Below are positions 3 through 24,629 of a DNA stretch of 46,774 bases, piece after piece. A program made the translations under genes and the position numbers. The notes beneath the pieces are model-generated. The model made no database searches and had not been told where the DNA came from. It was given only the letters and a program-made list of their open reading frames with translations. Origin of the DNA: a bacterium (lineage in GTDB: Bacteria; Patescibacteriota; Gracilibacteria; Peribacterales; Peribacteraceae); contig JAQBVR010000008.1 in NCBI GenBank assembly GCA_027623015.1, positions 1 to 46,774 of the forward strand. Direction: 5' to 3'. The first letter of the stretch is position 1, and every line of letters starts with the position of its first letter.

Positions 3-3000
3 AATGATATAGGGGTACGAGGGCCAAATGGGAAAATACTTACTCTTGATGAAGCGGGTGTCATCACAAAAGAAGAAGCAGTTGTGGAAGCAGACCAAGC
101 AGAGTTTGTAGAGGTTCAGCAAACACAGAGGCAGAACTTTCGCTTCATGCCATCAGATGAAAGCTCTTTACTTCTTACGTTACCGAAAACACTGAAAAGA
201 TATGGAAGCCATCGAATCAATATCATGTATAAGCAACATCCTCCTCCTGCATTTCAGAATCTCATTACCGTACAGGGGGATACTGTTTCGAATATAGTTG
301 TGGATGAATCAGCTCAACAAAAATTATTGAATGTGCCTAAAGGATTTACCGCAGTTATGGAAAATGTCCCAAAGTCTGTTATGCCAAGACGTCTAAAAAA
401 TGTTCATGGGAATCCACAGGTATTTATAGATGTACAAAGAAAGAATACGATCATGGCAGAAGACATCTCTTATGCTCGGATAGGACTCGAAAAAGGCCGT
501 TCTCTCATCGTTCAGCGAGAGAGTGGAACTGACACGTATGGTGAGAAGGACTTTCAAAAGCAAGAGATGGCTCAGGCAGATGTGTTACAAACAGTTGCAA
601 ACGTCCCCGCAATGCGCGCACTAGAAAATGGAGGAGATCAAGTTCTTGGTGGAGTTCGCTCTTTGCAAAGTGCATTTGACGTTGGTAGTGAATCAAATAT
701 GACACAGTCCTATGTGAACGATGTCCGCGGTGCATCGGACAATTTACTGGCGATGTACCAATCCAGTGGACTCAAAGAGAGTGCTGCATCTATTCGTCAG
801 GCAATAACACAGCTTCGTGCTGTAAACAAAGGAACGTATACTGATGAAGTAGAACAGTATCTGTCTGGTCTAGAGGAAAAGCTGCAAGTTATCGAACAGT
901 TGATCTCGTCGAAGTTCATCGAAAAACTTAATGAAGAAGTGCACAAAAATACGTTTTCCCCAGACTCACTTGCTACGTGGTGGGCGCGTAATGGTGTGAT
1001 CATCGTTAGTGCGATCGTCATTGCATGTCTCTGTGCTTCTGGTATCGGCTTAGCTGCAGGCGCGGCAGGTATAGCGATGACAACTGCTACTGGAGCGATG
1101 ACGTGGACAGGTCTTGTTGTTTCGAGTATCGGTTCAGGAGTAGGTGGGTACATCGGTTCAGAAGTTGGTAAAGAGCTAGCACGTACAGAATTTGCTACGT
1201 TTGGCAATGCTCAAGATGATATGGCAAGTGACTTACGACTGTATAAAGAAGGAAAGATTGATGGAGGAGAGTATGTGATGTCTGCCATACAGCAAATTGG
1301 AACAAACACTGCTATTTCGTTTATGCTTATTGGTGCAGGACAAGCGATTGGCAAGTGGGCGCAGGTTCAACTTGCATCCAATGCTGCAGGTCCAGAAGTC
1401 ATAGTGGCCAACATCGTGAACATGGCTAGAAATTCTCTCAATGTTGTCGATGAAGCATGGGATAAGCTCTTTGGAGGAGCAAAAGGGTTCTTTGCAGGTT
1501 ACATGAAAGAAGTCGGTCAGGAGTTTTACGAGGAAATGGTCTTCGAACCTGGAGCAGAACTTCTCCTCGGGCCATATCTTAGTAAAGTCGCAGCAGCTCT
1601 GAAGTGTTCTGGAAAGTTCCCTGGTATCAATACTGACTCAGATGTAGGGGTGACTGTCGCAGAAATGAGGCGCGTGGGTAACAGTATCGAACAGGTATGT
1701 GACTATACCAATAGTGATGCAAATCGTAAGCAGCTTCTCAAAGAGATAAGTGAAAATGGCGGTACGACAGAAGTGGATCCTGACACTGGAGACATCATCG
1801 CAGAAGCAGTAGAGAATGGTTTCCGTGTAAAGACAACGTATAGGGCATCTGCAGAACCTCAGTTGGTTCGTGTCCTCAAGCAGCGACCTATTGGAAAAGT
1901 GGATCCTGAAAGCACAGAGCTACCTGTCACCATGGTTACTGAATACAACATGCGACAAAATGCGGATGGTGCTTGGGTATATACACATCCAGGACCAGGA
2001 AATCTGACACTTCGTCAGTTCCTGAACAATCAAGATGACATCATTACCCTCAAGGGAGAAGAACCTGGAACGTTCCGTGTACGTATCGGAGCAGAGGTTC
2101 TTGTCCTCTTGGAGGCAGAGCTCGACACAGATACACAGCAGGAGACTGCATCAAAGCGATCACAACTATTTCCAGCAGCGCTAGATCCAAAAGTACGTTA
2201 CGAAAGTAAAACGCCATACAGCGAAGCAGATTTACTAACTATTGCGGAGCTTTCACGAGACAATCCACGACTTCTCAAAGTAGCCATAATTGTGCAGCAA
2301 GAACTAACGAAAAGTGATATCGATGCGGATCTTCGTGTACGTCTTGCAACTGCAGTAACCAATAAAACAGAACTTCCACAGGTTGTTGCTAAGGCACTGC
2401 AAACAGTGCATGAGCTTGAAGATGCAGCTGGTAACCGTGGAACTATTAAATTAGAAGGAACTCAAGATGGGCAAGAGGTGCTCAATGCACGGAAGCTCAA
2501 GATTTTATCTGATGCATACATGGAGTCTGACCCAAGGCTTAGTCGTACAGATGCATTGCAAAATGCAAAATTCTTACTCGATGCAGCTTTGGGTGGTGTG
2601 ACAGGTACTCTTGAAGCGAGAAGGCACGCTGTTGTCGATGGCGGACGATTTTCTATCGATGATATTGAAGGGTTAACTGAGCAGGCAGAAGCTGCGAAAG
2701 AAGAAGAATCAAAACAAAAAATATTTGAATACTACAATGGCAGTCCATCTGTCCAAGATGCTCAGTCACGACTAGAAAGTATTATTTCAGAGCAGTTTCC
2801 AAGAGATTTTGCTGAGCTTAAAGCACTCACAAGGGAGGTGATGACTTACTATGATCAGACGGACCAATACCATAACGCGGAGCACATGCTCCAGATGACA
2901 AGTGACATCTTCTTGCTAGCCGATACTGACAAGCTCACACCAGAGAGTATGCGTGAGTTGCTCATTGCCGGTTTGTATCATGATGTGGGCAACGCAGAAC

Positions 3001-6000
3001 ACCCTAACACGACTGCAGGTGTGGATGAACTAGCTGCTATGACAACATTCGTTGATGATAATCTGGCAGCAAAAAATGGACCTCTGGCAGATCTGGCTGC
3101 TGACCCAAGTGCTGTGCAACGCACGGCAGCAAATATACTGGGGACCGTCTTTGCCGATAGGCATGCGAGCCCCGAGCAACTTGCAAAACACGAGTATGTA
3201 CAAGAGGCAGCTGCGTACTTAACTGCTCAAGGGATTGAAACAACGACAGAGCAGTTGGCAGATCTTATGATTGCACCAGATGCTCTGACGGTGAAAAATG
3301 CAGACCTTCTTGGGTCTCTCAAAAAGGAAAATGCAGTGATCAACGGACTGAAAAACCATAGTGAAGATACCCGTAAAGACCTTACAAACTTGCGTAACTT
3401 CGTGAGGGGTAATCCAGAAGGTCCTGCCGCAGATCTTCTTGCACGCATCGATGCCGGAACCATAGATGCCGCAGGCATTCGCGAATTTATAGCGCCGTAT
3501 GCTGGTAAGTACGATATTTTTCCACCTATTTCTGCCCTTGGAAAGACGCCTGCACAGTATAAGGCAGGATTTGATATGTTTGTGGCTGGGAAGTTTCATG
3601 GATTTCGAAATGATGGAGAGACGGACTTTAGTCGCGAAGCAGGAGAGGGAAATGGTCTTTTGTCTTTACCTGGTGATCGATCGCAATCGGAGCAGGGGGC
3701 AGCAGTTTCAGCAGAGTCGAGTGCGTATTTCGATCAGGTCGTCCAGTTCGATGGAGAGATAAATTCCGTAATGCAGGATCTGCTGACAGAGGCTGCTATC
3801 GCAAGTCCTCAAGTTAATCTCATTGCGATGCCTATTGAACAGCTTGCTCAAAGGCTTTCTGCACGCATGGGAGCTTCTCGATTCGCACCATATCAGGCGC
3901 ATATTGATGCGCTGAGCGATGGAGAGCGTGCACTAAGTATTTCACAAATGAGCCCATCCCAGGTCAATGCATTGTTTGCACTGCAGACAGAATTAACTGT
4001 ACAAAGAGATGCTGCTGAGTTGGAGATACAATCCACTGTCACTTTTACAAAACAAGAAGTAAACGACCTTGCTCAAGCAGCTATTCGAAGCATTGTTGAT
4101 CCAGAGGGTACAGCTAGCAGTCTTGGAGAAGGGGTATTGCACTATCTAAAGACTGTGAATACAGATCCTGGCAATTTTGATGATATTAGACTTTTAGCAA
4201 AACAAGAGATTGGTGATGTCTCACCTGAAAATCGTGCCTATATAGAAGCGGAAATCGAGAGAGCCGTCACATTATTTAAAGATCTTCAGCATGGTAAAAA
4301 GGGTGGTCTCGATGGAGTAGCAGAATTCTTTATTCAAGAGGGTAGTTTTCCTATTGAGGAATTACATCAGCAATCAGCTATACCACTAAACACTGCAGCT
4401 GAAAAACAGTTGCATCAAGACCAAGTTCAGCAACTCAAAGAGCAGAGTGAAGTTGGTCTCATTCAAGCACGAAATACAGTCGGTGCGACACCGGAGGCTA
4501 TACAAGAGGTGGCAGCGGAGTTTGTAACTCAGAGAATCGATATGGCTAATGCAGCACTAACAGGTGACCCCGTGGCACTTGCTACGTACATCACACTTCT
4601 TGGAGGCCGAGAGAAAGTTGCGCAGGGTATGGCACAAAAGAACGAAAAGAGGGCATCTAAAGGAAAGCCAGAATATGCTACTGTAGAAGAATTTGTTCAA
4701 GCAGAATACGCGAAGGAGTTTGTGACTATTACCGATGCTATCGCACGAGGGGAGATTGGTTTAGATGCGGATAAGTATATCGATACAACGTTTACTGCTA
4801 TTCGGGATCTTGATGGTATCATGCCAGGCTTAGACATGGAGGCGAAGCAAGCGCTTATTCGCAAGTTGCACACTGCCTCTATGGAGAAACTCAATGCGAG
4901 TGGCAAGCACAATTTTGCAGACTTGAAATCGTATCTTGAATGGTTGATGAGTCCAGACCAGACCATCAAGGGCGGTCGTCCAGAGGCACGAGAGATTTCT
5001 GTAGATGAAGAGGTGGCGATGTCGTATTCTCAGGAGGCTTCATCACGATTGAATGCATCTATTGCAACTATTCAAGGTGCTGAAACGTCTGCATTTACGG
5101 CAGATGCAACGTCGGAGACTCTTGCACAAGTGGATAATGCTCTTGATAAAGCGGTGTTACAGGAAACGGCACGCATTTTAGTGGGTATAGAAACGACTGC
5201 TGGAGCGCGTGCGCTACCTGATGCTGAGCGATGGTTGATTCTAGAATTCTCCGCAACATTCTTACAAGATTTCCGTGTTGCTAATTTTGGTACCGAAGTT
5301 TCACCACAACAACTCACAGAGCTTGTGGTGCAGAATGCGGTAAATCTGGCGCATCAAAACATCATGGACCATATGACACTGGTTGGGTCTAGTCATGGCA
5401 CATTACATGTACTTCGTGGGAACTCAAGGATGCTTATGAATATGTTTAGTGATCCTGCATCTGGCTTCACACCAGAGATGCGTGTTCTTGCCCTTCAGGC
5501 AACATTTGATCATGACATGGGGTATACGAAGAGGACGCTGACGGGTAGCACGGAAGGCCAAGGTGTATTTGCTGCCTCCAAGGATCATCCACTGGAGAGC
5601 ACACTGCGTTTGGAAGCAAATAAGGATCAATACGTCGCTTTGTTTGGTCAAGAAGGATTTGTTACATTGAGGAATTCTATTTTGGATCATTCGGATCCAG
5701 TAGGAAAAGAGCAGTATGCAGATGGAAGAACTAAGGTCGATATTCTAGGGGACCCAAATGCAAGCCCTGCAGAGCGCGTTGCTGCTGCTGTTGCATGTGT
5801 GGATTGTCTTGCCACGGTAAGTAACCTGAAGGCATCTCCTCTCATTCGTGATAATCCGGAGATCATGGCAACGATGATACGTATACAAAAGATTCATACA
5901 CGTATAGATGCTGCCAAAACTAGTGCAGAGAAAGAGAGTCTACAAGCTGAGGCAAAGGCAATTCGGCTCCAGTTGCAAGATCGTATACAGTCTATGGATG

Positions 6001-6824
6001 GCTTAGAACAAGATGCAAAAGATGCCATTGTGCTGTCACTTGACGCAACAATGACTTGGGAAGAAAGCCCATTTGCTATTGGGCTGAACTTGCAAATGCT
6101 TGGTGCTACCGTTGATCCTGATGTTCGTATCGTTGATGGAAAACCTAATGTAACGTATTTGATAGATCCTGCAGGTCAGCGCTTGATCGAAGATGCTGTT
6201 GGGCCTGCACAAGCTGAAGAGATTGGCGAGAAGGGCATTACGAAAGCTGCAAAGGACTTTGGGGGTCTCGATGACACAAATATGGCAGTATTCAAAGAGT
6301 ATATGCAACATGCTCGGCATTTTGCTACTGGTACAGAAGCAGAGCATCAGTCTGCAAGAGAATACTTTGCTGCTACACCAAACATCGTCATAGAAACTCA
6401 AGAGCATCTTGTCATTACCTTGGCGCTAGGAGAAAGTCCGCAGTATGCAGAAGTAGCTCAGTCGGTAGAAAAGGCAGTACATATAGACAACTTACGTCAA
6501 TTTGCTCGGCAGAATATAGAGAAGTTAATCGCAGGAGAGGCACTGACTATTACCGATGCAGAAGGTAAAAAGCTAGAAATAACTGACCGAGAAGAACAGC
6601 GAAGCACTATTACAGAATCCATTCAAACTATTGTTGAGCAGCTACCCAAAACGTATGTAATCAAGAGTGTCGATGGTAAAACAGATGCCTCTTTGCAATC
6701 AGAGTATGAAGCAGTTCAGAGGGCTGTCATTGGTATGGATCCTGCTTCTGCAATGCAGACATGGGCAGACTTTTGTGTTAGAATATATACATCGGCAGGT
6801 AGCTCTTCCCCCATTCGCCAATGA
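3..6824 (+). CDS. Giant protein with two HD-hydrolase-like domains (5' end outside window)
   Basis: The frame is open from the first bases of the window, with no stop before the GTG at 84, so the true start lies upstream and the visible part is about 2,270 codons. Residue numbers here count from that GTG. A glycine/alanine-rich hydrophobic stretch at about 304-360 looks like a membrane hairpin. A first HD-like domain carries YHNAEH (H930) and YHDVGN (H966, D967), the layout of metal-dependent HD phosphohydrolases and cyclic-nucleotide phosphodiesterases. A second near the C-terminus has SSHGTLH (H1771), FDHDMG (H1810, D1811), KDHP (H1835), LDHSD (H1869) and CVDC (D1907), a full H...HD...H...D series. 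The rest is mostly helical, acidic and unrecognised. Its stop overlaps the next start (ATGA), which suggests translational coupling. The enzymatic role is inference from metal-ligand spacing; the substrate is unknown. Confidence 0.8.
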   Translation, partial: NDIGVRGPNGKILTLDEAGVITKEEAVVEADQAEFVEVQQTQRQNFRFMPSDESSLLLTLPKTLKRYGSHRINIMYKQHPPPAFQNLITVQGDTVSNIVVDESAQQKLLNVPKGFTAVMENVPKSVMPRRLKNVHGNPQVFIDVQRKNTIMAEDISYARIGLEKGRSLIVQRESGTDTYGEKDFQKQEMAQADVLQTVANVPAMRALENGGDQVLGGVRSLQSAFDVGSESNMTQSYVNDVRGASDNLLAMYQSSGLKESAASIRQAITQLRAVNKGTYTDEVEQYLSGLEEKLQVIEQLISSKFIEKLNEEVHKNTFSPDSLATWWARNGVIIVSAIVIACLCASGIGLAAGAAGIAMTTATGAMTWTGLVVSSIGSGVGGYIGSEVGKELARTEFATFGNAQDDMASDLRLYKEGKIDGGEYVMSAIQQIGTNTAISFMLIGAGQAIGKWAQVQLASNAAGPEVIVANIVNMARNSLNVVDEAWDKLFGGAKGFFAGYMKEVGQEFYEEMVFEPGAELLLGPYLSKVAAALKCSGKFPGINTDSDVGVTVAEMRRVGNSIEQVCDYTNSDANRKQLLKEISENGGTTEVDPDTGDIIAEAVENGFRVKTTYRASAEPQLVRVLKQRPIGKVDPESTELPVTMVTEYNMRQNADGAWVYTHPGPGNLTLRQFLNNQDDIITLKGEEPGTFRVRIGAEVLVLLEAELDTDTQQETASKRSQLFPAALDPKVRYESKTPYSEADLLTIAELSRDNPRLLKVAIIVQQELTKSDIDADLRVRLATAVTNKTELPQVVAKALQTVHELEDAAGNRGTIKLEGTQDGQEVLNARKLKILSDAYMESDPRLSRTDALQNAKFLLDAALGGVTGTLEARRHAVVDGGRFSIDDIEGLTEQAEAAKEEESKQKIFEYYNGSPSVQDAQSRLESIISEQFPRDFAELKALTREVMTYYDQTDQYHNAEHMLQMTSDIFLLADTDKLTPESMRELLIAGLYHDVGNAEHPNTTAGVDELAAMTTFVDDNLAAKNGPLADLAADPSAVQRTAANILGTVFADRHASPEQLAKHEYVQEAAAYLTAQGIETTTEQLADLMIAPDALTVKNADLLGSLKKENAVINGLKNHSEDTRKDLTNLRNFVRGNPEGPAADLLARIDAGTIDAAGIREFIAPYAGKYDIFPPISALGKTPAQYKAGFDMFVAGKFHGFRNDGETDFSREAGEGNGLLSLPGDRSQSEQGAAVSAESSAYFDQVVQFDGEINSVMQDLLTEAAIASPQVNLIAMPIEQLAQRLSARMGASRFAPYQAHIDALSDGERALSISQMSPSQVNALFALQTELTVQRDAAELEIQSTVTFTKQEVNDLAQAAIRSIVDPEGTASSLGEGVLHYLKTVNTDPGNFDDIRLLAKQEIGDVSPENRAYIEAEIERAVTLFKDLQHGKKGGLDGVAEFFIQEGSFPIEELHQQSAIPLNTAAEKQLHQDQVQQLKEQSEVGLIQARNTVGATPEAIQEVAAEFVTQRIDMANAALTGDPVALATYITLLGGREKVAQGMAQKNEKRASKGKPEYATVEEFVQAEYAKEFVTITDAIARGEIGLDADKYIDTTFTAIRDLDGIMPGLDMEAKQALIRKLHTASMEKLNASGKHNFADLKSYLEWLMSPDQTIKGGRPEAREISVDEEVAMSYSQEASSRLNASIATIQGAETSAFTADATSETLAQVDNALDKAVLQETARILVGIETTAGARALPDAERWLILEFSATFLQDFRVANFGTEVSPQQLTELVVQNAVNLAHQNIMDHMTLVGSSHGTLHVLRGNSRMLMNMFSDPASGFTPEMRVLALQATFDHDMGYTKRTLTGSTEGQGVFAASKDHPLESTLRLEANKDQYVALFGQEGFVTLRNSILDHSDPVGKEQYADGRTKVDILGDPNASPAERVAAAVACVDCLATVSNLKASPLIRDNPEIMATMIRIQKIHTRIDAAKTSAEKESLQAEAKAIRLQLQDRIQSMDGLEQDAKDAIVLSLDATMTWEESPFAIGLNLQMLGATVDPDVRIVDGKPNVTYLIDPAGQRLIEDAVGPAQAEEIGEKGITKAAKDFGGLDDTNMAVFKEYMQHARHFATGTEAEHQSAREYFAATPNIVIETQEHLVITLALGESPQYAEVAQSVEKAVHIDNLRQFARQNIEKLIAGEALTITDAEGKKLEITDREEQRSTITESIQTIVEQLPKTYVIKSVDGKTDASLQSEYEAVQRAVIGMDPASAMQTWADFCVRIYTSAGSSSPIRQ

Positions 6825-7420
6825 ACATGAGAGAAACACTAACAACGTCGGAGCCTCGTTTAGCCCAGATCCAAGATAATCTCACTGCAGAACAGTTACG
6901 TTTACTGCTTACCTCTAGGCCAGAGATAGAACGATACCTTACGTTAGGTGAACAGTTGGGCGCATTTGCATTGAGCACTGATTCTGAACAAGCGCAGAGA
7001 GACATTCTTGTTCGACATGCTCCTGCATCAGTCATTGCTGTAATTGTGGATCAAGATATTCCTATCAATGATCTAGTAAATGACCCTATAGCTATTGCTG
7101 GTTTTCTTCTTAATGTAGCCGAGAAGACGCAGCAGGAACAAGATAGTCCTGTAACAGCAAATGTAGCCCGTGAACAACTTACTGTTTTGAATGCTGAGAC
7201 AGCCCCTTTGAGCTTGGTTATCGCTACACATCAAAAAAGCCATCCAGCATGGTTTGCATTAATAAATCATGGAAATCCTAATCTGGAATTTCTGGCTCCT
7301 TCGGACATTGCTGCCATCTATAATGCGATTGATCAGAACGAATGGAAGGGGGCAACATCTCCAGATATTGATAGGATTGTCGGAGATGCTCGTGAAAGTG
7401 AGGCTGGAATTCTGTCGTAA
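6821..7420 (+). CDS. Hypothetical protein coupled to the giant HD protein
   Basis: A 199-aa protein whose ATG overlaps the stop of the giant gene by 4 nt, so the two are probably translated together. It is soluble, acidic and predicted mostly helical, with no signal peptide, membrane segment or motif I recognise. The 4-nt overlap and the 130-nt gap with a separate promoter before the next gene make this a two-gene (or longer, extending left) transcription unit. Conserved coupling would suggest that it is an adaptor or regulator of the giant protein; that is inference only. Confidence 0.75.
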   Translation: MNMRETLTTSEPRLAQIQDNLTAEQLRLLLTSRPEIERYLTLGEQLGAFALSTDSEQAQRDILVRHAPASVIAVIVDQDIPINDLVNDPIAIAGFLLNVAEKTQQEQDSPVTANVAREQLTVLNAETAPLSLVIATHQKSHPAWFALINHGNPNLEFLAPSDIAAIYNAIDQNEWKGATSPDIDRIVGDARESEAGILS

Positions 7421-16974: not shown

Positions 16975-17391
16975 ATGCCAACTCTTTATCTTACTACACA
17001 GGAGCTTCAGTCATACGAAGCACTCGGAGACGATGTTAAGGTGGAATGCCTTATAGAAGAAGAAAGCTGTGGCACACTTGAGACGGATGAGGAGCTTGTT
17101 GTTCGACTTCGGCTTGTAGCATCAGATTCACATCCTGAAGTTCGAGAGATTATCTTTGTGATCCTCGAAGCACTTCAGCAAGGTAATGAGCTAGACCCAA
17201 ATTTACTAGATCGCATACCACATGCCTCACTTCCTGTTGTATTCTTTGGGATGGGTGTTCGTGGCATGTCTGCTTTTGTTGAACTGATCCTTACAGATAT
17301 GCAGGGTGCGGAAGATATAGAAAGCTTGGCTGCTCTTACAAAAGTTCGACACCTTCTTGTGAGTGCAAATGCATCCCCACTTGTAGCATGA
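16975..17391 (+). CDS. Hypothetical protein A1 (paralogue of A2)
   Basis: A 138-aa soluble, acidic protein of no family I recognise. It is clearly related to the gene at 18204. Both open with M.T.YLT, both have RLR/RLS plus HP/DP in the middle, and both end with FF..G....(S)AF....LT......DIE.(L/V)AAL..(V/I)R..L. Its stop overlaps the ATG of B1 by 4 nt, as A2 overlaps B2. The repeated order A-B-A-B shows a duplicated two-gene module, which suggests that each A acts with its B. It has its own leaderless promoter. Confidence 0.8.
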   Translation: MPTLYLTTQELQSYEALGDDVKVECLIEEESCGTLETDEELVVRLRLVASDSHPEVREIIFVILEALQQGNELDPNLLDRIPHASLPVVFFGMGVRGMSAFVELILTDMQGAEDIESLAALTKVRHLLVSANASPLVA

Positions 17392-18149
17392 GTGAAATAC
17401 CACAACCTCAGCAGGCACTGAGTCTAGATACTCTTCCTGAAAAAAGCCGTGCAGCGCTAATGAAAGCGGTGATCGACACATTGGATCTCCAAGAAGAGGG
17501 TATGGGAGCATTACCCACATTGCGTGCTGGTATCCGTGAGGTTGCAGCCCAACAAAAGCTAGGTGAAGTTGTTACTATATTGGAAAATGATACAGCGTTT
17601 GAAAATCGTGAAGACTTCGAATCACTTCGTGATCTTTTAAGGCAAGAAGTAATCTTATTTGATTTCGAAAGACAATATGCTGCGGAGATGACTCCCGAGG
17701 AAGAGAGTTCAGTGATGAGATTCCTTAAGCGAAACAAAGTGGCAATCGCAGTTGTTCTTGTGGCTCTTGCTACAGGAGGAATTGTAGCCGGTCTGCATAG
17801 TGCAGGCATTATTACACTTACGCGATTACCATTTACTGAACCAGTGCAAGCTTTCTTTGCTAGTGCATCTGACACAGTGCAAGAATGGTGGGGTTCACTG
17901 CAGTCTTGGTGGGCAGGAGGAGGAGATGTAGCAGCAACGGATGCAGCTAAGAGTGAGGCTGGACAATTAGCAGAAGAGGCTGTTAGTGATGCACAAAGGG
18001 CTTACGATGGCGATATTGTTTCAGAGGCCCCGCTGTCACCTAGTCCGTCAGATAAGTTCTACGATAGCTCAGGAGGCATAAATGCTGATCCTCCAGCCAA
18101 ACTAGATAATGGAACGGATCCATTTTCTTTGGACGATGGCTCAAAATAG
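17388..18149 (+). CDS. Hypothetical single-pass membrane protein B1
   Basis: A 253-aa protein: a helical, acidic N-terminal ~115 residues, one basic-flanked transmembrane segment (FLKRNKVAIAVVLVALATGG, about 118-142), then a Trp-rich and Pro/Ser-rich C-terminal part that would lie outside the membrane if the positive-inside rule holds. There is no signal peptide or known domain. Translation is coupled to A1 by an ATGA overlap. Its architecture matches B2 (N-terminal soluble domain, one membrane segment, Pro-rich tail), although sequence identity is low by eye. Confidence 0.75.
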   Translation: MSEIPQPQQALSLDTLPEKSRAALMKAVIDTLDLQEEGMGALPTLRAGIREVAAQQKLGEVVTILENDTAFENREDFESLRDLLRQEVILFDFERQYAAEMTPEEESSVMRFLKRNKVAIAVVLVALATGGIVAGLHSAGIITLTRLPFTEPVQAFFASASDTVQEWWGSLQSWWAGGGDVAATDAAKSEAGQLAEEAVSDAQRAYDGDIVSEAPLSPSPSDKFYDSSGGINADPPAKLDNGTDPFSLDDGSK

Positions 18150-18164
18150 GGCAAGTTACTTTTA

Positions 18165-18193
18165 TTGAGTAAAACAGCATTAAATGCTATAAT
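18165..18193 (+). promoter_or_regulatory. Promoter of the A2-B2 gene pair
   Basis: TTGAGT (18165-18170), 17-nt spacer, perfect TATAAT (18188-18193). The ATG at 18204 is 10 nt downstream of the -10. The promoter overlaps the apparent TTG-started extension of A2, which argues against that earlier start. Confidence 0.75.
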
Positions 18194-18203
18194 CAGACTA
18201 TAT

Positions 18204-18629
18204 ATGCTTACGAAGATCTACCTTACTTCGGCAGAACAAAAGCAATTTAGTTCTCTATCTGAAGAACTTAAAGAGGGTTGGAAAGTTACTGATCAGGAAA
18301 TCACATATAAAGATACTCCTGAGCGTTTCAAGATGCGTTTATCTTTCTTGCATGTGCATGATCCAAAACTCCTTGCATTCAAAGAGCAGCTTCAAGAAGT
18401 AGAAGATAAAGCATCAGCAGTTGCACTACTAGAGGCCATGGACCTTTCAGATGTGCATCAGCCAGATCTAGCGCAACTATTCTTTACACTAGGGCCGGAT
18501 GCAGTGACTTCATTTATTGGTGGTATGCTTACATCTGCAAAAAATGACAAAGATATAGAGGGAGTTGCAGCATTGTCCATGATTCGTAATCAGCTCATCA
18601 AATCTCTTGCCTTACACTTCGCATCATGA
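18204..18629 (+). CDS. Hypothetical protein A2 (paralogue of A1)
   Basis: A 141-aa acidic helical protein related to A1; the closest match is in the last 60 residues (LFFTLG, TSFI, LTSA, DIEGVAAL, IRNQL). The frame is open upstream to a TTG at 18165, but I chose the ATG at 18204: its MLTKIYLT aligns with the A1 N-terminus MPTLYLT, and a complete promoter occupies 18165-18193. Its stop overlaps the B2 start by 4 nt. Function unknown; the paired arrangement suggests a cytoplasmic partner of the membrane protein B2. Confidence 0.78.
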   Translation: MLTKIYLTSAEQKQFSSLSEELKEGWKVTDQEITYKDTPERFKMRLSFLHVHDPKLLAFKEQLQEVEDKASAVALLEAMDLSDVHQPDLAQLFFTLGPDAVTSFIGGMLTSAKNDKDIEGVAALSMIRNQLIKSLALHFAS

Positions 18630-19468
18630 GTACAGCAGATATCCTTCCAGAGGCAGAGCCAACGATAGACTCAAACGAATGGTCGGGTCCTGCACCGCTT
18701 TTGCCTACACCAGAACGCGTATCGCAATTTCTCGAGATGGATATCGAAACGGTACGGACGATGTTTATCAATGTGAATGAACGGGCAGGCCTCGTAGATA
18801 GGATCATCGCAGAACAAGATGCACTAGCAAACGTGCATAACAACATCACGCATGAAGAGATTTCTGCATTGGTGAATATAGCAGGGGAGCGCTTAGCTCT
18901 AAATCCTACGATGGATCTCGAGGAACTGGAGTTTACATTGCACGAAGCTCGCTCTACTTTTGCAGCAAATAGTCACTTCCTTGAAGCATCAAGCCCTCAT
19001 GCGCTGGATAGTGGGGAGGCGAAGGCTGCAGTCCTTGAGAAGGTGACAGATTCGAAAGTAAAAGCAGAAACAACAGAAGAGAGGAGTTTGTGGGCCAAAG
19101 CTTGGGATGTCATCACATACATGCCTCGCAAACACCCTGTAATCACAGCGCTAATCGCACTTGCTGCAGCGGGGTGGGGGATCTACGCACTGTGGGATTA
19201 TTTGGGTGAAGCCATCGTTATACCGAATCCTATGGATGGTGCAGCTGATGTAGCTAATGAACTTGTTGCTCCGGTAGGAGGGGAGTTTGGTGCAATCAAT
19301 GATGGAGGAATCGTTCCTCCCAATTTGGATATTCCAGACCCTGGTGCTCCAACTTACGATCCTGGAGCAGGAACTCCAGATGTATTTGCGAGTCCTCAAA
19401 CTCCAGATGTACCGACACCAACTGTAAATCCAAAGATATCGGATCTATATCCAGATGGTCCGAATTGA
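18626..19468 (+). CDS. Hypothetical single-pass membrane protein B2
   Basis: A 280-aa protein with a helical N-terminal ~165 residues, one membrane segment (ITALIALAAAGWGIYALW, about 172-197) after a basic RKHP, and a Pro/Asp/Gly-rich C-terminal tail of about 80 residues with repeated PD/PNP/PGA motifs that looks extended and probably extracytoplasmic. It overlaps A2 by 4 nt. It lies directly upstream of the 1,677-aa giant gene, which may belong to the same transcript. No known domain. Confidence 0.75.
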   Translation: MSTADILPEAEPTIDSNEWSGPAPLLPTPERVSQFLEMDIETVRTMFINVNERAGLVDRIIAEQDALANVHNNITHEEISALVNIAGERLALNPTMDLEELEFTLHEARSTFAANSHFLEASSPHALDSGEAKAAVLEKVTDSKVKAETTEERSLWAKAWDVITYMPRKHPVITALIALAAAGWGIYALWDYLGEAIVIPNPMDGAADVANELVAPVGGEFGAINDGGIVPPNLDIPDPGAPTYDPGAGTPDVFASPQTPDVPTPTVNPKISDLYPDGPN

Positions 19469-19595
19469 TCTGATCACATAAAAATATTACACCAATACAA
19501 ACATAGCAAATGAAAGACCCAATCAAGGCGAAAATACAGAAGCGAAAGAATCGCAAGAACGTTTATTCGAACAATATGGCCTGATTTCTCAGCTA

Positions 19596-22500
19596 ATGCG
19601 ATATCGTAGATCACTTGGTCCTGAGCGTGAGTCCGTACAAGATCTCCAAACTTTGGAGTTAAAAAAAGAACGTGAAATACTTCAGGATAAGACAATGTTT
19701 ACTGATTTTGGAGAGATTGCACGTGCAAATGAATTCTATTGGAGAATTAAGTCAATGCAATTAGAAGCATTGCTAAAAGGTAAAACACAGCCTCTAAGAT
19801 TACTATCAGCACAAGAGACAAAAAAATACAGAAAAGAACTCATCGTAGGAAATCAAGCCATGACGTATTACCAGTATATGCCTCAAGTTCAAGAACAGGT
19901 GATTGATTTTATGGATATGTACGACCAAGAATTTGTACGGGTATTACCCTTTCTTTCTAAGGTTCAGCGTGAACATTTACAAGAGGAACATGCAATAGCG
20001 CTTGAGTACATGCTTGTGTTACGAACAGCAGTAGATGACCGAAGAAATTATTCATCTATATTTTTAATTGACCAAGAGCATGCTCGTATCGAAGACCGAC
20101 TGATTGATGAGAAGGACATGAAACAACAGGAGCGTACGACATTAGAAAAGGAACAACTGTCATTGCATAGCGCACGCGGAACTCTTGCTAAATCTCTCAC
20201 ACCTGAATCCAAAGAAGCTCTTGCTAAAGAGGACAAGATGATAAAGGACTTTCGTGATACTGAAGATGTTCAAAAAAAAATACAAATTCAAAAAGACCTA
20301 ATACTTTATCGTCGAGAAGTTAGATTTGATCAAGATAAGAAAATCATCGACATATTGAAGGGTAATCCTGAGGGGAAGGATATTCCTGGTGCGCCGAAAA
20401 ACTTTCTTCCGCAACGATTGTATCTTCAGACTATTCAGCTTCGCTATAATCAGAGTCGAAAGATTCAGGTTGAACTTGCAAAGGACGAACAATACAAAGG
20501 TTGGGAACCAGAAGACAAAAACGCAGCACAGAAACTGTTGAGTCAAGAGCGCCGCAGTTACATGGATCAGATGATAGCAGTAACGCAACAGATGGCAGGT
20601 TACCACCTTGCAATGTACGAGATGACCTCAATTCAAAATCACTTTGGAAATGACTTTTCCCTTGAGCACACAGGTAACCCTTATGAAGCAGAAACACCAA
20701 AAGATATATTAGAAAATGTAGACAAGAGTATCGATGGTGCTCGAGATTTTCATGATGAAAGATTGCAAGCTGCTTTGAATAAAGTTGACTCTGCATTTAG
20801 TCCAAATGGCTTTGAAAATCTGAAAGATGCTGGAATCATGGAGATCCTAGAATCAGCTGATGGCATCTCCTCAGTCGTAAGAAATCTCATTCTAGCAACA
20901 ACACCAGAGGGGGCAACCCGAGACTCCATTGCTGCTTGGATAGATAAAAATCTTCCACTCGCCATTCAAGATTCTCTAGGAGAAGGTCCTACGAAAAAAG
21001 AAAAATTACAGAAAATAAGAGATGTATTTATACGTTTTCGAGACACTGGGGCTATTGGCAAATTTAGAAAAACGCTAGCTAGGGTACAAGAAATGCCAGA
21101 TGCATCCCAATTTGCAGGTCAAGAATATCAGTTGGAGGCTGCTAAGCAATTGAATCCTGATACAGTATCTAAAGAAACTATAGGTAAAAAAGTGATTGTG
21201 AATAAAAAGGAAGTTTTTGTAAATGGTGCAACTGTGTACAGAGTGTTACTCGACCAAATGCACAAGGATGGAGAGGCATTCGAAAAAGGATATGGTACGT
21301 TCTTGAAGGAGATGGAGGATCTTGTAGATGTCCGCTTAGGACTTATAGCAGAGATTGATTCTATCAAAGAGGGTTGGAGGAAGCTTTCCATCACTATTAC
21401 TGCAGTCGTAGGTGGTTCGACTGGATTAGTTATTGCTGGCGCTGCACTTGGTGGCTCCGCTCTGACCTATGGTGCAATGAAAGTGCCTAAGGCTGTCTCG
21501 TTACTCCGATCTGGTACAGGTAATGTTGTACGACTCGGGAATCAAGCTGTACGTGGAATGATGCGCCCAGATAGATTGCTTACTGGAGGAGCTGCTGTCT
21601 ACCAAGGATACCGCACCTATAAGGACATAGAACGACTTGGGGAGATAACTAAATCTCTAGAAAAAGAGCGTACGAAAAGAATTACTGAACTGAAAAGAAC
21701 AGGGTTTGAGTCAGTAGATGGAGATAAGACTTTTACCTATGAGGGAGCTGGGAAGAAGATAACAATAAAAGTTAATGATCTCGATAAGGCTCTACAGGGA
21801 CAAAGTACTGCTCAAATTATCCGTACAGTTGTTAGTGCTACTGAAACTACTGCATTGGCGTATTTAGCTATTCGTGGTGTAGGCACTGCTGTAAGAACGG
21901 TTGCAACACGTGCATTTTTACCGTTAGTTATAGCTGAAGTTGCCATCGAGTCAGTCGTTCATACAGTAGACCAAAGCGCAGATCGTGAGTTCCTTCTCAA
22001 TGCACCAGCGTGGCTCATTGCACGTATCAATCTTGAGGATGCGATAGGGGAGACACCGTATTCTATGCTTGCCAAGTCTTCTGGTCGCATGATCACAGAT
22101 AATCTATTCTCGTATGGAGAAAAGACGAAAAACGTGGAAGAGAAGACAGATATTCGCATGAAGATGATCTTTTCTATTTTAAATAACGAACTACGTTCAT
22201 TCCCAGACATAGCTACTGATCTATATGGAGGAAGTACGCACCCAAGTAATCTCGAGAGATTCTACGAAGGGAAAGAAGCATTCTTCAATGCAACATTTCT
22301 TCCTGTATTTACAAGACGTTTGCAAAGCGTTGCAGGAGGAAAGCTGAGTCTAGAAGACATTTCCAAGGGTAAGGTGAATAGTAGCTGGGGCGTGCCACTA
22401 CCTGGTTGGTTAGACTCACCAAATATTTCACTCGTTGAAGTGCGCACGGCAATGCGTGAGTCTATGGTCTACTGTCAGCAGCTTGTACGCATGAGTGATT

Positions 22501-24629
22501 ACTCTGATGCTGTTGCTGAACAGGCAAAGATCCAAGAAGAACTTAAAAAGAACCCAGATGACCTCAAACTTAAACTTCGTTCGGATATATTGGCAGATAT
22601 TATTTCTGCACTTGGTCAGAGGAAGGTCTTTGGAAAGCCTGCATCAGAACTTGATCCTAAAGAAGACATTGGCTTGAAATATGCTAACAGAGATGATATT
22701 TACAAATTAGCAGTAGAAAATGCAGGAGATCGTGGTCGTCTTGCACACGTCGTTCCTGCAACATATGAAGAGTCAGAAGCTGCTACAGACCCCGACTGGA
22801 TACATAGACACATACGTCCGATACTTGGTAACAAGCCCTTTGGCATCACGCATAAAGAAGTAGACAGACAAAAATATATGTATGCAGCACAGCAAGTACG
22901 GAACTTATTAAAGGATCCAAAGTTGCCGGAAAATACCTCTGATCGTGCAGCACTTGTAGAGATGACGCGATCTGCCGTTGAGCATGTTTCGAGTAAGCGT
23001 AGCACTCTTCGCCGTAGTGGAGATGGTATGAACCCTATTCAATTTAATGGAAGGCTTGGTGCGGGTAATGCTGGACTTGGACTTGGTGAACTTGCTGGAA
23101 AGAAAGAATTTGATCAAAGTAAAGTAATAGGTGAGCTGTCAGAATCTGTACGCCTTACAAATGGTGACAAGCTGTACCTAAAAACGTATGTGTATGGAGA
23201 TCTGAAAGATCCCTCAAAGATGTACGTGGTGCAAAAGGCGTCTTTAGATGTAGACTTAGCTGTTCCAGTTGCAAGAGCTATATGGGTCAACACTCGCTCT
23301 CTTCGTAACGAAGGCTCAAGACGTATAGTACAAGGTCAACCACTGATCATGTCTGGTGCAGATTTTGCTAAACACCAGCCAAATGGAAAGAAACTTCTCG
23401 ATGAGATAGCTTCTATAAATACGGCGTTTGATGCTAAGAATGATGCAGATAATCTGAAGCGTTTCGAAGCAATGCGTGCTGCGAATAAGCCAAAAGTTGC
23501 TGAAGTACATGAAAAGGCTATCAAGCAGCAAAGTACTTTACATAAGTTGCCATTTGGAGAGCGGTACATGTATGTGTCGTATTCAAAAGAAAACGGCTTT
23601 GTGTATCTCGATATGTATCAAGATGATCGTATCAACTATCCAGCATTTAGAGCTCCACCAGATCAGCAACGGATAAAGGAGAAGAAAGACAATCCTCCTG
23701 TAGAAATGAAGATGGGAGACAGTAGTCCATATTTCCTTAATGCTGATTATCGAGAAACTTTTGCAAAGAATGGTATAGATCCTAAGCTGTATGAAGATGC
23801 TTTGTCATACCCAGTAGTAAATGAGGGGTATACAAAACTTGATGATCGCTATTCGATTCAGAAGATTCTCTCTGTCTATGTAAAAGTACATACAGAATTG
23901 TGTGAAGATGCTGAGAATAACATTCTTCCACTCTATAAGAAGATGAATACACCTGAAGACAAGATCCTGTTCTTGCGAACGCTGAATAACTTGATTCAAG
24001 AAGAGCGAAACCCTCGAAGGCCAAACTACACAAGAGCATTCGATGTAGCAGCTCGTAGAGTTCTCTTGGAAGTTGCACGTGCGAAGGAAGAACATGCGGT
24101 CTATGAGCACGTAAGCGAAGGGAAAGTACATTGGCAGACAGAGATGCACGTAGATGGGAACACCTATGATGTTGGTATCAAAAGCAATTCACGTTCGAAA
24201 AGTGGTGGTGTGTTATACCAACCAAACAAAGAGACAGATTCAGTTACTGTCATCTATAAAGAAAAGGGGACAGATAAAGAACACAAGTGGACGGTATGGG
24301 GACATAGATTCTTTGCTTCTGAGAAGTTTCCAAAAGAAGTTCGAGATATCGTATTTGCAGCGATAACGACGCCAACAGAAAATGGTATCGCATGGAATAG
24401 CATGCAACATGTTTACGAGAGATTTCCTCACGATAGTGGTTACACTAGCAGACTCTATGAATCATGTGAGGAAATGTATGAACAAGCTTTGAACAAGCAG
24501 GAAGTACTAAAGGGCTTGTTCGAATCTATTCGTGATAATGGTGCGAAGGTTACGAAGGAAACTTGGGTGGATATACGTAATGATATGCGAAAGAGCGAAA
24601 TAAGGGGGGATTTTGACAAAACGAACTAA
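19596..24629 (+). CDS. Giant hypothetical protein with two hydrophobic regions
   Basis: At least 1,677 aa. The first ~600 residues are highly charged and predicted helical or coiled-coil. A Gly/Ala-rich hydrophobic segment lies at about 597-625 (TAVVGGSTGLVIAGAALGG), a second hydrophobic region at about 740-790, then ~880 mainly soluble residues with no domain I recognise. The Gly-rich hairpin resembles the one in the giant protein at the left edge, so the two may be analogous, though I see no convincing homology. The coding-like frame continues 38 codons upstream of this ATG to a TAA at 19479-19481, without ATG, GTG or TTG. The real start may therefore be non-canonical (ATA 19503 or CTG 19581) or this ATG. 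It follows B2 by 127 nt. Confidence 0.82.
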   Translation: MRYRRSLGPERESVQDLQTLELKKEREILQDKTMFTDFGEIARANEFYWRIKSMQLEALLKGKTQPLRLLSAQETKKYRKELIVGNQAMTYYQYMPQVQEQVIDFMDMYDQEFVRVLPFLSKVQREHLQEEHAIALEYMLVLRTAVDDRRNYSSIFLIDQEHARIEDRLIDEKDMKQQERTTLEKEQLSLHSARGTLAKSLTPESKEALAKEDKMIKDFRDTEDVQKKIQIQKDLILYRREVRFDQDKKIIDILKGNPEGKDIPGAPKNFLPQRLYLQTIQLRYNQSRKIQVELAKDEQYKGWEPEDKNAAQKLLSQERRSYMDQMIAVTQQMAGYHLAMYEMTSIQNHFGNDFSLEHTGNPYEAETPKDILENVDKSIDGARDFHDERLQAALNKVDSAFSPNGFENLKDAGIMEILESADGISSVVRNLILATTPEGATRDSIAAWIDKNLPLAIQDSLGEGPTKKEKLQKIRDVFIRFRDTGAIGKFRKTLARVQEMPDASQFAGQEYQLEAAKQLNPDTVSKETIGKKVIVNKKEVFVNGATVYRVLLDQMHKDGEAFEKGYGTFLKEMEDLVDVRLGLIAEIDSIKEGWRKLSITITAVVGGSTGLVIAGAALGGSALTYGAMKVPKAVSLLRSGTGNVVRLGNQAVRGMMRPDRLLTGGAAVYQGYRTYKDIERLGEITKSLEKERTKRITELKRTGFESVDGDKTFTYEGAGKKITIKVNDLDKALQGQSTAQIIRTVVSATETTALAYLAIRGVGTAVRTVATRAFLPLVIAEVAIESVVHTVDQSADREFLLNAPAWLIARINLEDAIGETPYSMLAKSSGRMITDNLFSYGEKTKNVEEKTDIRMKMIFSILNNELRSFPDIATDLYGGSTHPSNLERFYEGKEAFFNATFLPVFTRRLQSVAGGKLSLEDISKGKVNSSWGVPLPGWLDSPNISLVEVRTAMRESMVYCQQLVRMSDYSDAVAEQAKIQEELKKNPDDLKLKLRSDILADIISALGQRKVFGKPASELDPKEDIGLKYANRDDIYKLAVENAGDRGRLAHVVPATYEESEAATDPDWIHRHIRPILGNKPFGITHKEVDRQKYMYAAQQVRNLLKDPKLPENTSDRAALVEMTRSAVEHVSSKRSTLRRSGDGMNPIQFNGRLGAGNAGLGLGELAGKKEFDQSKVIGELSESVRLTNGDKLYLKTYVYGDLKDPSKMYVVQKASLDVDLAVPVARAIWVNTRSLRNEGSRRIVQGQPLIMSGADFAKHQPNGKKLLDEIASINTAFDAKNDADNLKRFEAMRAANKPKVAEVHEKAIKQQSTLHKLPFGERYMYVSYSKENGFVYLDMYQDDRINYPAFRAPPDQQRIKEKKDNPPVEMKMGDSSPYFLNADYRETFAKNGIDPKLYEDALSYPVVNEGYTKLDDRYSIQKILSVYVKVHTELCEDAENNILPLYKKMNTPEDKILFLRTLNNLIQEERNPRRPNYTRAFDVAARRVLLEVARAKEEHAVYEHVSEGKVHWQTEMHVDGNTYDVGIKSNSRSKSGGVLYQPNKETDSVTVIYKEKGTDKEHKWTVWGHRFFASEKFPKEVRDIVFAAITTPTENGIAWNSMQHVYERFPHDSGYTSRLYESCEEMYEQALNKQEVLKGLFESIRDNGAKVTKETWVDIRNDMRKSEIRGDFDKTN

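What the first reader, a model, noticed from the sequence alone, without database searches (positions are those of the whole stretch)
3..7420. Giant protein with two HD-type hydrolase domains and a coupled partner
Two complete HD-like metal sites (H930/H966/D967 and H1771/H1810/D1811/H1835/H1869/D1907, counted from 84) sit about 840 residues apart in one chain of more than 2,270 residues that also has a Gly-rich membrane hairpin. HD domains usually occur once in proteins of 200-800 aa, often as nucleotide or cyclic-nucleotide phosphohydrolases. A giant, membrane-associated protein with two, translationally coupled to a 199-aa partner, is not an architecture I know. Candidate roles (nucleotide signalling, defence, surface-associated giant) are open.
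Basis: partly seen in the sequence, partly recalled or inferred. Interest (0 to 1): 0.75.

Follow-up and report, generated by a model that had tools for sequence, protein, structure and literature searches.

The report
Modular giant proteins with HD-enzyme payloads
The window holds the broken-off end of a giant bacterial protein that belongs to a mix-and-match family in tiny parasitic-type bacteria (Peribacteria and relatives), in which a shared front half carries exchangeable enzyme modules, here two HD-type hydrolases, followed by a matching small gene that looks like an antidote; this would be a previously undescribed toxin-like weapon system, though no toxicity has been shown.

Summary
A 2,273-residue open frame, cut by the contig start, has two separate H...HD sites 841 residues apart, a Gly-rich hydrophobic hairpin and a 199-aa gene overlapping its stop by ATGA. 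A shared N-terminal trunk with the hairpin, mostly behind a small conserved helical gene, is joined to interchangeable C-terminal modules: HD2 plus partner, other HD types, zeta-toxin kinases, calpain+FHA, cNMP-binding domains. HD1 is a fused copy of a stand-alone enzyme family whose relatives score above Pfam's cut-off for class I cyclic-nucleotide phosphodiesterases. HD2 is a divergent HD domain with a 4His/2Asp ligand set invariant in 11 homologues. The partner follows HD2, evolves faster, and persists alone under purifying selection at the same locus in a genome lacking the giant. Best reading: a polymorphic effector (toxin-like) system in which HD2 is the payload and the partner its immunity protein; secretion, target and toxicity are inferred. 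An intracellular signalling/defence role is the main rival. AlphaFold and Foldseek gave nothing usable.

The parts
3..6824 (+). giant protein, 5' end missing at the contig start (2,273 residues present; estimated full length about 2,750)
   Evidence: open 5' end; window residue 75 aligns with trunk position 546-567 in full-length relatives
3..2177 (+). conserved trunk, C-terminal part (residues about 60-725), shared with giants that carry other payloads
   Evidence: profile match E 7e-180; the window is a member of the profile
966..1172 (+). Gly-rich hydrophobic hairpin, residues 322-390
   Evidence: hydropathy maximum 2.67; aligned hairpin in all nine trunks
2727..4232 (+). HD1 module (residues 909-1410), homologous to stand-alone 549- and 641-aa proteins in relatives
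   Evidence: (E 4e-32 and 5e-22)
2871..3305 (+). HD1 metal-site residues H957 (2871), H993-D994 (2979-2984), D1101 (3303), with Y-H-N-x-x-H and H-D-x-G-N motifs
   Evidence: invariant in A10; PF01966 21.8/22.2 bits against cut-off 22; relatives PDEase_I over cut-off
4425..6821 (+). HD2 module (residues 1475-2273), 44-47% identical to C-terminal modules of five other giants
5268..5960 (+). HD2 core with invariant ligands H1798 (5394), H1837-D1838 (5511-5516), H1862 (5586), H1896 (5688), D1934 (5802)
   Evidence: 11 sequences; profile link to HD3 E 8e-6
6821..6824 (+). ATGA stop/start overlap (translational coupling); second ATG at 6827 is the start that best matches relatives
   Evidence: 4-nt overlap in L026, L027, L028, L029, L030
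6821..7420 (+). 199-aa all-helical partner, proposed immunity protein of the HD2 module

Best explanation
This is a polymorphic, toxin-like effector of a Peribacteria-type bacterium. A small helical protein encoded just upstream (lost here beyond the contig end) would act as chaperone or export adaptor for the shared N-terminal trunk; the trunk, with its single Gly-rich hairpin, would carry the chain into or across a membrane of a neighbouring or host cell; the C-terminal module is the payload. In this copy the payload is HD2, a metal-dependent HD phosphohydrolase, preceded by a second, fused HD enzyme (HD1) related to class I cyclic-nucleotide phosphodiesterases. The two would hydrolyse phosphodiester or nucleotide signals or pools in the target. 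The ATGA-coupled downstream protein is the cognate immunity protein. Shown by sequence: module swapping on a common trunk, the upstream gene, the HD2-partner linkage, conserved metal ligands, the PDE-like ancestry of HD1, the orphan partner under purifying selection. Inferred: export, delivery to another cell, toxicity, substrates, neutralisation by the partner.
For: Same trunk, different C-termini: L028 and L035 are 59% identical over about 900 trunk residues and then unrelated (HD2 versus cNMP-binding), while L028's C-terminus is 44% identical to the window's on a barely similar trunk (cNMP). Payloads on related trunks include zeta toxin (L091 E 3e-14; L036 subthreshold), calpain-like protease+FHA, other HD types. 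A small helical gene abuts the giant start: leave-one-out profiles find it in 16 of 23 giants at E<1e-3 (one of 529 background frames, itself ahead of a short trunk-bearing gene). Partner next to HD2 in all six close loci; a small downstream gene follows HD2 also on a different trunk type, with a shared P-x-W motif. The partner diverges faster than HD2 (21-36% against 43-50% identity in 13 of 15 pairs; dN 0.19 against 0.11 in L026/L027). Orphan partner in G059, 72-76% identical, dN/dS about 0.2, beside the same neighbour gene as in L027, no giant found there. Patchy occurrence: HD2 in 11 of 353 class genomes.
Against: No signal peptide and no recognised secretion system linked to these loci. 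No toxicity data. HD domains are not among the terms found in the held main text of the standard polymorphic-toxin survey (PMC3482391). About 340 residues follow the last HD2 ligand, unlike the short terminal payloads of CDI or Rhs toxins. cNMP-binding and FHA domains usually act inside the producing cell. No structure support: mean pLDDT 50.9, no Foldseek hit. G059 is a 95%-complete draft, so a giant elsewhere cannot be excluded. Partner homology between the two trunk types is marginal (E 0.007). Seven of 23 giants failed the E<1e-3 test for the upstream gene.
Confidence: 0.5

Rival explanations
1. Intracellular membrane-tethered signalling or abortive-defence protein. The hairpin anchors the giant in the inner membrane; cNMP/FHA modules in relatives sense signals; HD1 (class I PDE-like) and HD2 degrade cyclic or other nucleotides inside the producing cell; the partner is a regulatory subunit.
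For: HD1 relatives match PDEase_I above the cut-off and PDE4/PDE10 sequences; one HD1 stand-alone protein ends in a cNMP-binding domain and two giants carry such domains; FHA domains in L088 and a weak one in L086; no signal peptide.
Against: Zeta-toxin payload on a related trunk, wholesale C-terminal swapping, fast-evolving partner that also persists without the giant, very patchy occurrence, no PADLOC match to the window giant or its partner (the TIR/PycC-type hits of L036 cover only its cNMP-binding region).
Confidence: 0.3
2. Large surface or attachment protein of an episymbiont, with the HD domains incidental or degenerate.
For: Giant proteins are reported as membrane/cell-surface proteins in Vampirococcus (PMC8080830), and very large, partly extracellular proteins as a main source of strain variation in Ca. 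Peribacter (PMC4736985).
Against: No signal peptide or multi-TM anchor; metal ligands strictly kept over large divergence, so the sites are catalytic or at least metal-binding; enzyme modules are exchanged as units.
Confidence: 0.1
3. The partner is an obligate subunit or folding chaperone of the HD2 enzyme rather than an immunity protein (possible within the effector view or the signalling view).
For: Tight ATGA coupling in all six close loci and co-travel with HD2 across trunks.
Against: Intact orphan partner under purifying selection at a locus without the giant; faster divergence than HD2.
Confidence: 0.2
4. HD2 is not an HD domain; its His/Asp pattern belongs to another metal-binding fold.
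For: No Pfam HD match for any of the 11 members; no PDB profile hit of sense; direct profile comparison with dGTPase, RNase Y and HD-GYP sets not significant.
Against: Profile link to HD3 at E 8e-6 with the H, HD and H positions aligned; HD3 in turn matches Pfam HD (E 0.0028, below its cut-off) and the dGTPase set (9e-4), against controls of 0.02-0.35; the invariant H..HD..H..H..D order and the predicted all-helical content agree.
Confidence: 0.12

Closest known systems
Polymorphic toxin systems (CDI/CdiA, Rhs, LXG-type; Zhang et al. 2012, PMC3482391)
   Same: conserved N-terminal trunk, exchangeable C-terminal enzymatic module, small module-specific downstream gene, orphan copy of that gene, patchy distribution
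   Different: no known trafficking domain or secretion signal; payload region about 800 aa with the catalytic site in its middle; HD hydrolase payload; a conserved small gene upstream; lineage is Peribacteria/Gracilibacteria
Class I cyclic-nucleotide phosphodiesterases (PDEase_I, PF00233; PDE4, PDE5, PDE10)
   Same: HD1 and its stand-alone relatives share the YHN-x-x-H and HD motifs and a downstream D; relatives pass Pfam's cut-off; a cNMP-binding domain occurs in one HD1 protein
   Different: window HD1 itself does not reach PDEase_I; the second metal motif reads G-N instead of the usual H; similarity is confined to the first part of the PDE domain
HD superfamily (PF01966) hydrolases such as dGTPase, HD-GYP, PgpH
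   Same: HD2 ligand order H..HD..H..H..D resembles the multi-ligand, probably two-metal sites of HD-GYP/PgpH (from general knowledge)
   Different: too divergent for Pfam; linked only through HD3; embedded in a giant protein
Giant surface proteins of Vampirococcus and large variable proteins of Ca. Peribacter (PMC8080830, PMC4736985)
   Same: size class and lineage; the large proteins are among the most variable between strains
   Different: those passages do not describe a trunk/payload/partner organisation; identity with this family was not tested

Membership tests
HD superfamily, HD1 | H...HD...D metal motif, helical domain, Pfam HD | tested here: met
   E 1.5e-4, 21.8 bits (22.2 with neighbours) against cut-off 22; ligands conserved; profile E 2e-4 to HD-GYP and 5e-4 to RNase Y. 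In the full-chain scan 18.1 bits, below cut-off
HD superfamily, HD2 | H...HD...D ligands conserved across homologues | tested here: met
   six ligands invariant in 11 sequences
HD superfamily, HD2 | recognised by HD family models or fold | tested here: inconclusive
   Pfam none; bridge through HD3 E 8e-6; AlphaFold model too poor
Class I cyclic-nucleotide PDE, HD1 | match to PDEase_I | tested here: inconclusive
   relatives 25.9 and 29.8 bits against 24.8 and PDE4B E 4e-5; the HD1 profile itself matches PDE5 only at E 0.19; the window chain gives no PDEase_I match
Class I cyclic-nucleotide PDE, HD1 | 3',5'-cyclic nucleotide hydrolysis | not testable with these tools
   needs a biochemical assay
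Polymorphic toxin system | shared N-terminal region with unrelated exchangeable C-terminal modules | tested here: met
Polymorphic toxin system | small module-specific gene immediately downstream | tested here: met
   window plus five relatives with ATGA overlap; the five HD2 loci on the other trunk have a small downstream gene with marginal homology
Polymorphic toxin system | orphan immunity-like genes | tested here: met
   one case, G059/L039; draft genome
Polymorphic toxin system | trafficking or secretion domain | tested here: not met
   no signal peptide seen, no Pfam/NCBIfam trafficking domain in the window giant, and none by Pfam in its full-length close relatives; full membership therefore not claimed
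Polymorphic toxin system | toxic payload neutralised by the partner | not testable with these tools
   needs expression experiments
Known anti-phage defence systems | match to PADLOC models | tested here: not met
   window giant and partner

The most novel reading that the evidence does not exclude
An undescribed class of giant polymorphic effectors specific to Peribacteria/Gracilibacteria-type ultra-small bacteria, with its own upstream adaptor gene and no known secretion route, that delivers HD phosphohydrolases (including a class I PDE-like one) into other cells, with cognate immunity proteins: a contact weapon of epibionts acting on nucleotide signalling.
Probability: 0.35. Interest if true: 0.82.

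Novelty: new variant of a known kind. Interest (0 to 1): 0.63.

Why it matters
How ultra-small, host-dependent bacteria act on the cells they live on is largely unknown, and their genomes hold many uncharacterised giant genes. A family with a recognisable trunk, named payload enzymes and candidate immunity genes turns those giants into testable effectors, and offers HD hydrolases, one of them cyclic-nucleotide-PDE-like, as a possible new payload class. It also shows that giant genes should be compared module by module rather than as whole proteins.

Tried and rejected
AlphaFold of residues 905-2045 with the four sequences allowed: mean pLDDT 50.9, not usable; Foldseek against PDB without any E<=0.001. 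Partner model: all-helical, pLDDT 62.8, no fold match. PDB profile search with HD2 gave only spurious repeat-protein hits. Not viral and not on phages or plasmids at the sensitivity used; the trunk could not be searched in viral contigs. The missing 5' part was not found on another contig of the genome (no positive control in that search). PADLOC: nothing for the window giant or partner. The upstream small gene has distant paralogues in 73 of 74 family genomes, in three examined contexts beside a GreA-like gene, so its mere presence in a genome is no marker; only position and close similarity count. Literature searches found no description of this system in the open-access library, which is not proof of absence.

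Full report
Setting. The window is the first 46,774 bases of contig 12 of a 1.10-Mb, 99%-complete genome. Close relatives of the gene lie in records titled Candidatus Peribacter and uncultured Ca. Peregrinibacteria, and some genomes of the same class need TGA read as an amino acid, as in Gracilibacteria; the host is therefore a Peribacteria-type member of the candidate phyla radiation.

Observation. The frame 3..6824 is open from the first base. The start at 84 is not real: full-length relatives continue about 480 residues to the left of the equivalent point and are preceded by another gene.

A mosaic family. Searching 74 genomes of the family with the giant gave three separate kinds of partial match: the trunk, HD1 alone in small proteins, and the C-terminal HD2 module. 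All-against-all comparison of the fetched giants shows a shared trunk of about 1,100 residues that contains the hairpin, followed by unrelated modules. L028 (HD2) and L035 (cNMP-binding) are 59% identical in the trunk and then unrelated; L028 and the window are 44% identical in the last 800 residues although their trunks are barely similar. A trunk profile finds 24 of 353 genomes of the class. C-terminal modules seen are HD2 (six loci on this trunk, five on another trunk type), a third HD type (L082, L090), zeta toxin (L091, E 3e-14; L036 subthreshold), calpain-like protease with FHA domains (L088, the calpain match just under the cut-off), and cNMP-binding pairs (L035, L036).

The operon. Directly before the giants lies a gene for a helical protein of about 100-118 aa, often with a 4-nt overlap. 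Leave-one-out profiles detect it at E<1e-3 in 16 of 23 giants, against one of 529 background frames, and that one precedes a shorter trunk-bearing gene in L085. Weak paralogues occur in nearly all genomes of the family, three of those examined beside a GreA-like gene. In the window this gene would lie beyond the contig end.

HD1. Residues 909-1410 are homologous to stand-alone proteins of 549 and 641 aa, one of which ends in a cNMP-binding domain. Further relatives include 144-329-aa open frames in other families. HD1 itself sits at Pfam HD's cut-off. Two of its small relatives exceed Pfam's cut-off for PDEase_I, and one matches PDE4B at E 4e-5. HD1 is thus best placed beside class I cyclic-nucleotide phosphodiesterases, with the reservation that the similarity covers only the first metal-binding part. 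None of the other ten HD2 loci carries HD1, so the double-HD architecture is a local fusion.

HD2. Eleven homologues (the ten others 23-66% identical to the window) share only 12 invariant positions, and six of them are the H, HD, H, H, D set. Pfam does not recognise it, and direct profile comparisons with dGTPase, RNase Y and HD-GYP sets fail; the link runs through HD3 (E 8e-6, ligands aligned), which itself matches dGTPase (9e-4) and Pfam HD (0.0028, below cut-off), while control profiles gave 0.02-0.35. Structure prediction was uninformative. HD2 as an HD domain is likely, not proven.

Partner. A downstream gene of about 200 aa overlaps the stop by 4 nt in the window and all five close relatives. 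In five HD2 loci on the other trunk a 142-198-aa gene follows closely; homology is marginal (E 0.007) but a P-x-W motif recurs. The partner diverges faster than the module it accompanies. In G059 an intact partner 72-76% identical to those of L026 and L027 stands alone, next to the same neighbour gene (by its sequence an L,D-transpeptidase) that flanks the operon in L027; no trunk or HD2 was found in that genome, and its dN/dS of about 0.2 shows selection to keep the protein. That pattern fits an immunity gene better than an obligate subunit, with the caveat that the genome is a draft.

Mechanism. The best-supported reading is a toxin-like polymorphic effector: upstream adaptor, delivery trunk with a hairpin, HD payload(s), downstream immunity protein. 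Shown: modularity, linkage, conservation, orphan partner. Inferred: export, delivery, substrates, toxicity and neutralisation. The main rival is a membrane-tethered intracellular nucleotide-signalling or abortive-defence protein, favoured by the cNMP, FHA and PDE-like domains and by the lack of any secretion signal.

Comparison with the known. The organisation works like polymorphic toxin systems, but the trafficking criterion was tested and not met, so formal membership is not claimed. The passages consulted on large proteins of Ca. Peribacter and Vampirococcus describe size, variability or surface localisation, not this organisation.

Noticed in passing
window 16975-24629 +: A second cluster: two small genes that look like paralogues (138 and 154 aa, similar C-termini), two mid-size genes (253, 280 aa) and a 1,677-aa protein without Pfam match, just before lepA.
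   Followed up: partly
window 32441-34903 -: 820-aa protein similar (E 2e-47) to 991-997-aa proteins that lie next to giants in L086 and L089.
   Followed up: no
L085 11973-14075 -: A 701-aa gene in tandem with a giant shares its first 240 residues and has its own upstream small gene: short versions of the effector exist.
   Followed up: partly
L129 6534-8093 -: A 520-aa protein with the giants' N-terminal type directly behind the small upstream gene, another short version.
   Followed up: no
L122 8299-8688 -: Distant paralogue of the upstream small protein, next to a GreA-like gene here and in L124 and L125; paralogues occur in 73 of 74 family genomes. Function unknown.
   Followed up: partly
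L126 8090-8548, L127 5356-5814: Two further giant genes are cut by contig ends shortly after their start, suggesting these loci break assemblies.
   Followed up: no
L026 5003-6238 +: A large-serine-recombinase-like gene (by sequence) about 440 bases upstream of the giant, hinting at mobility of the cassette.
   Followed up: no
L088 7601-9466 - and L053 16249-18027 -: Stand-alone 593-622-aa proteins matching the calpain+FHA C-terminal module of a giant lie beside giants: possible free payload cassettes.
   Followed up: no
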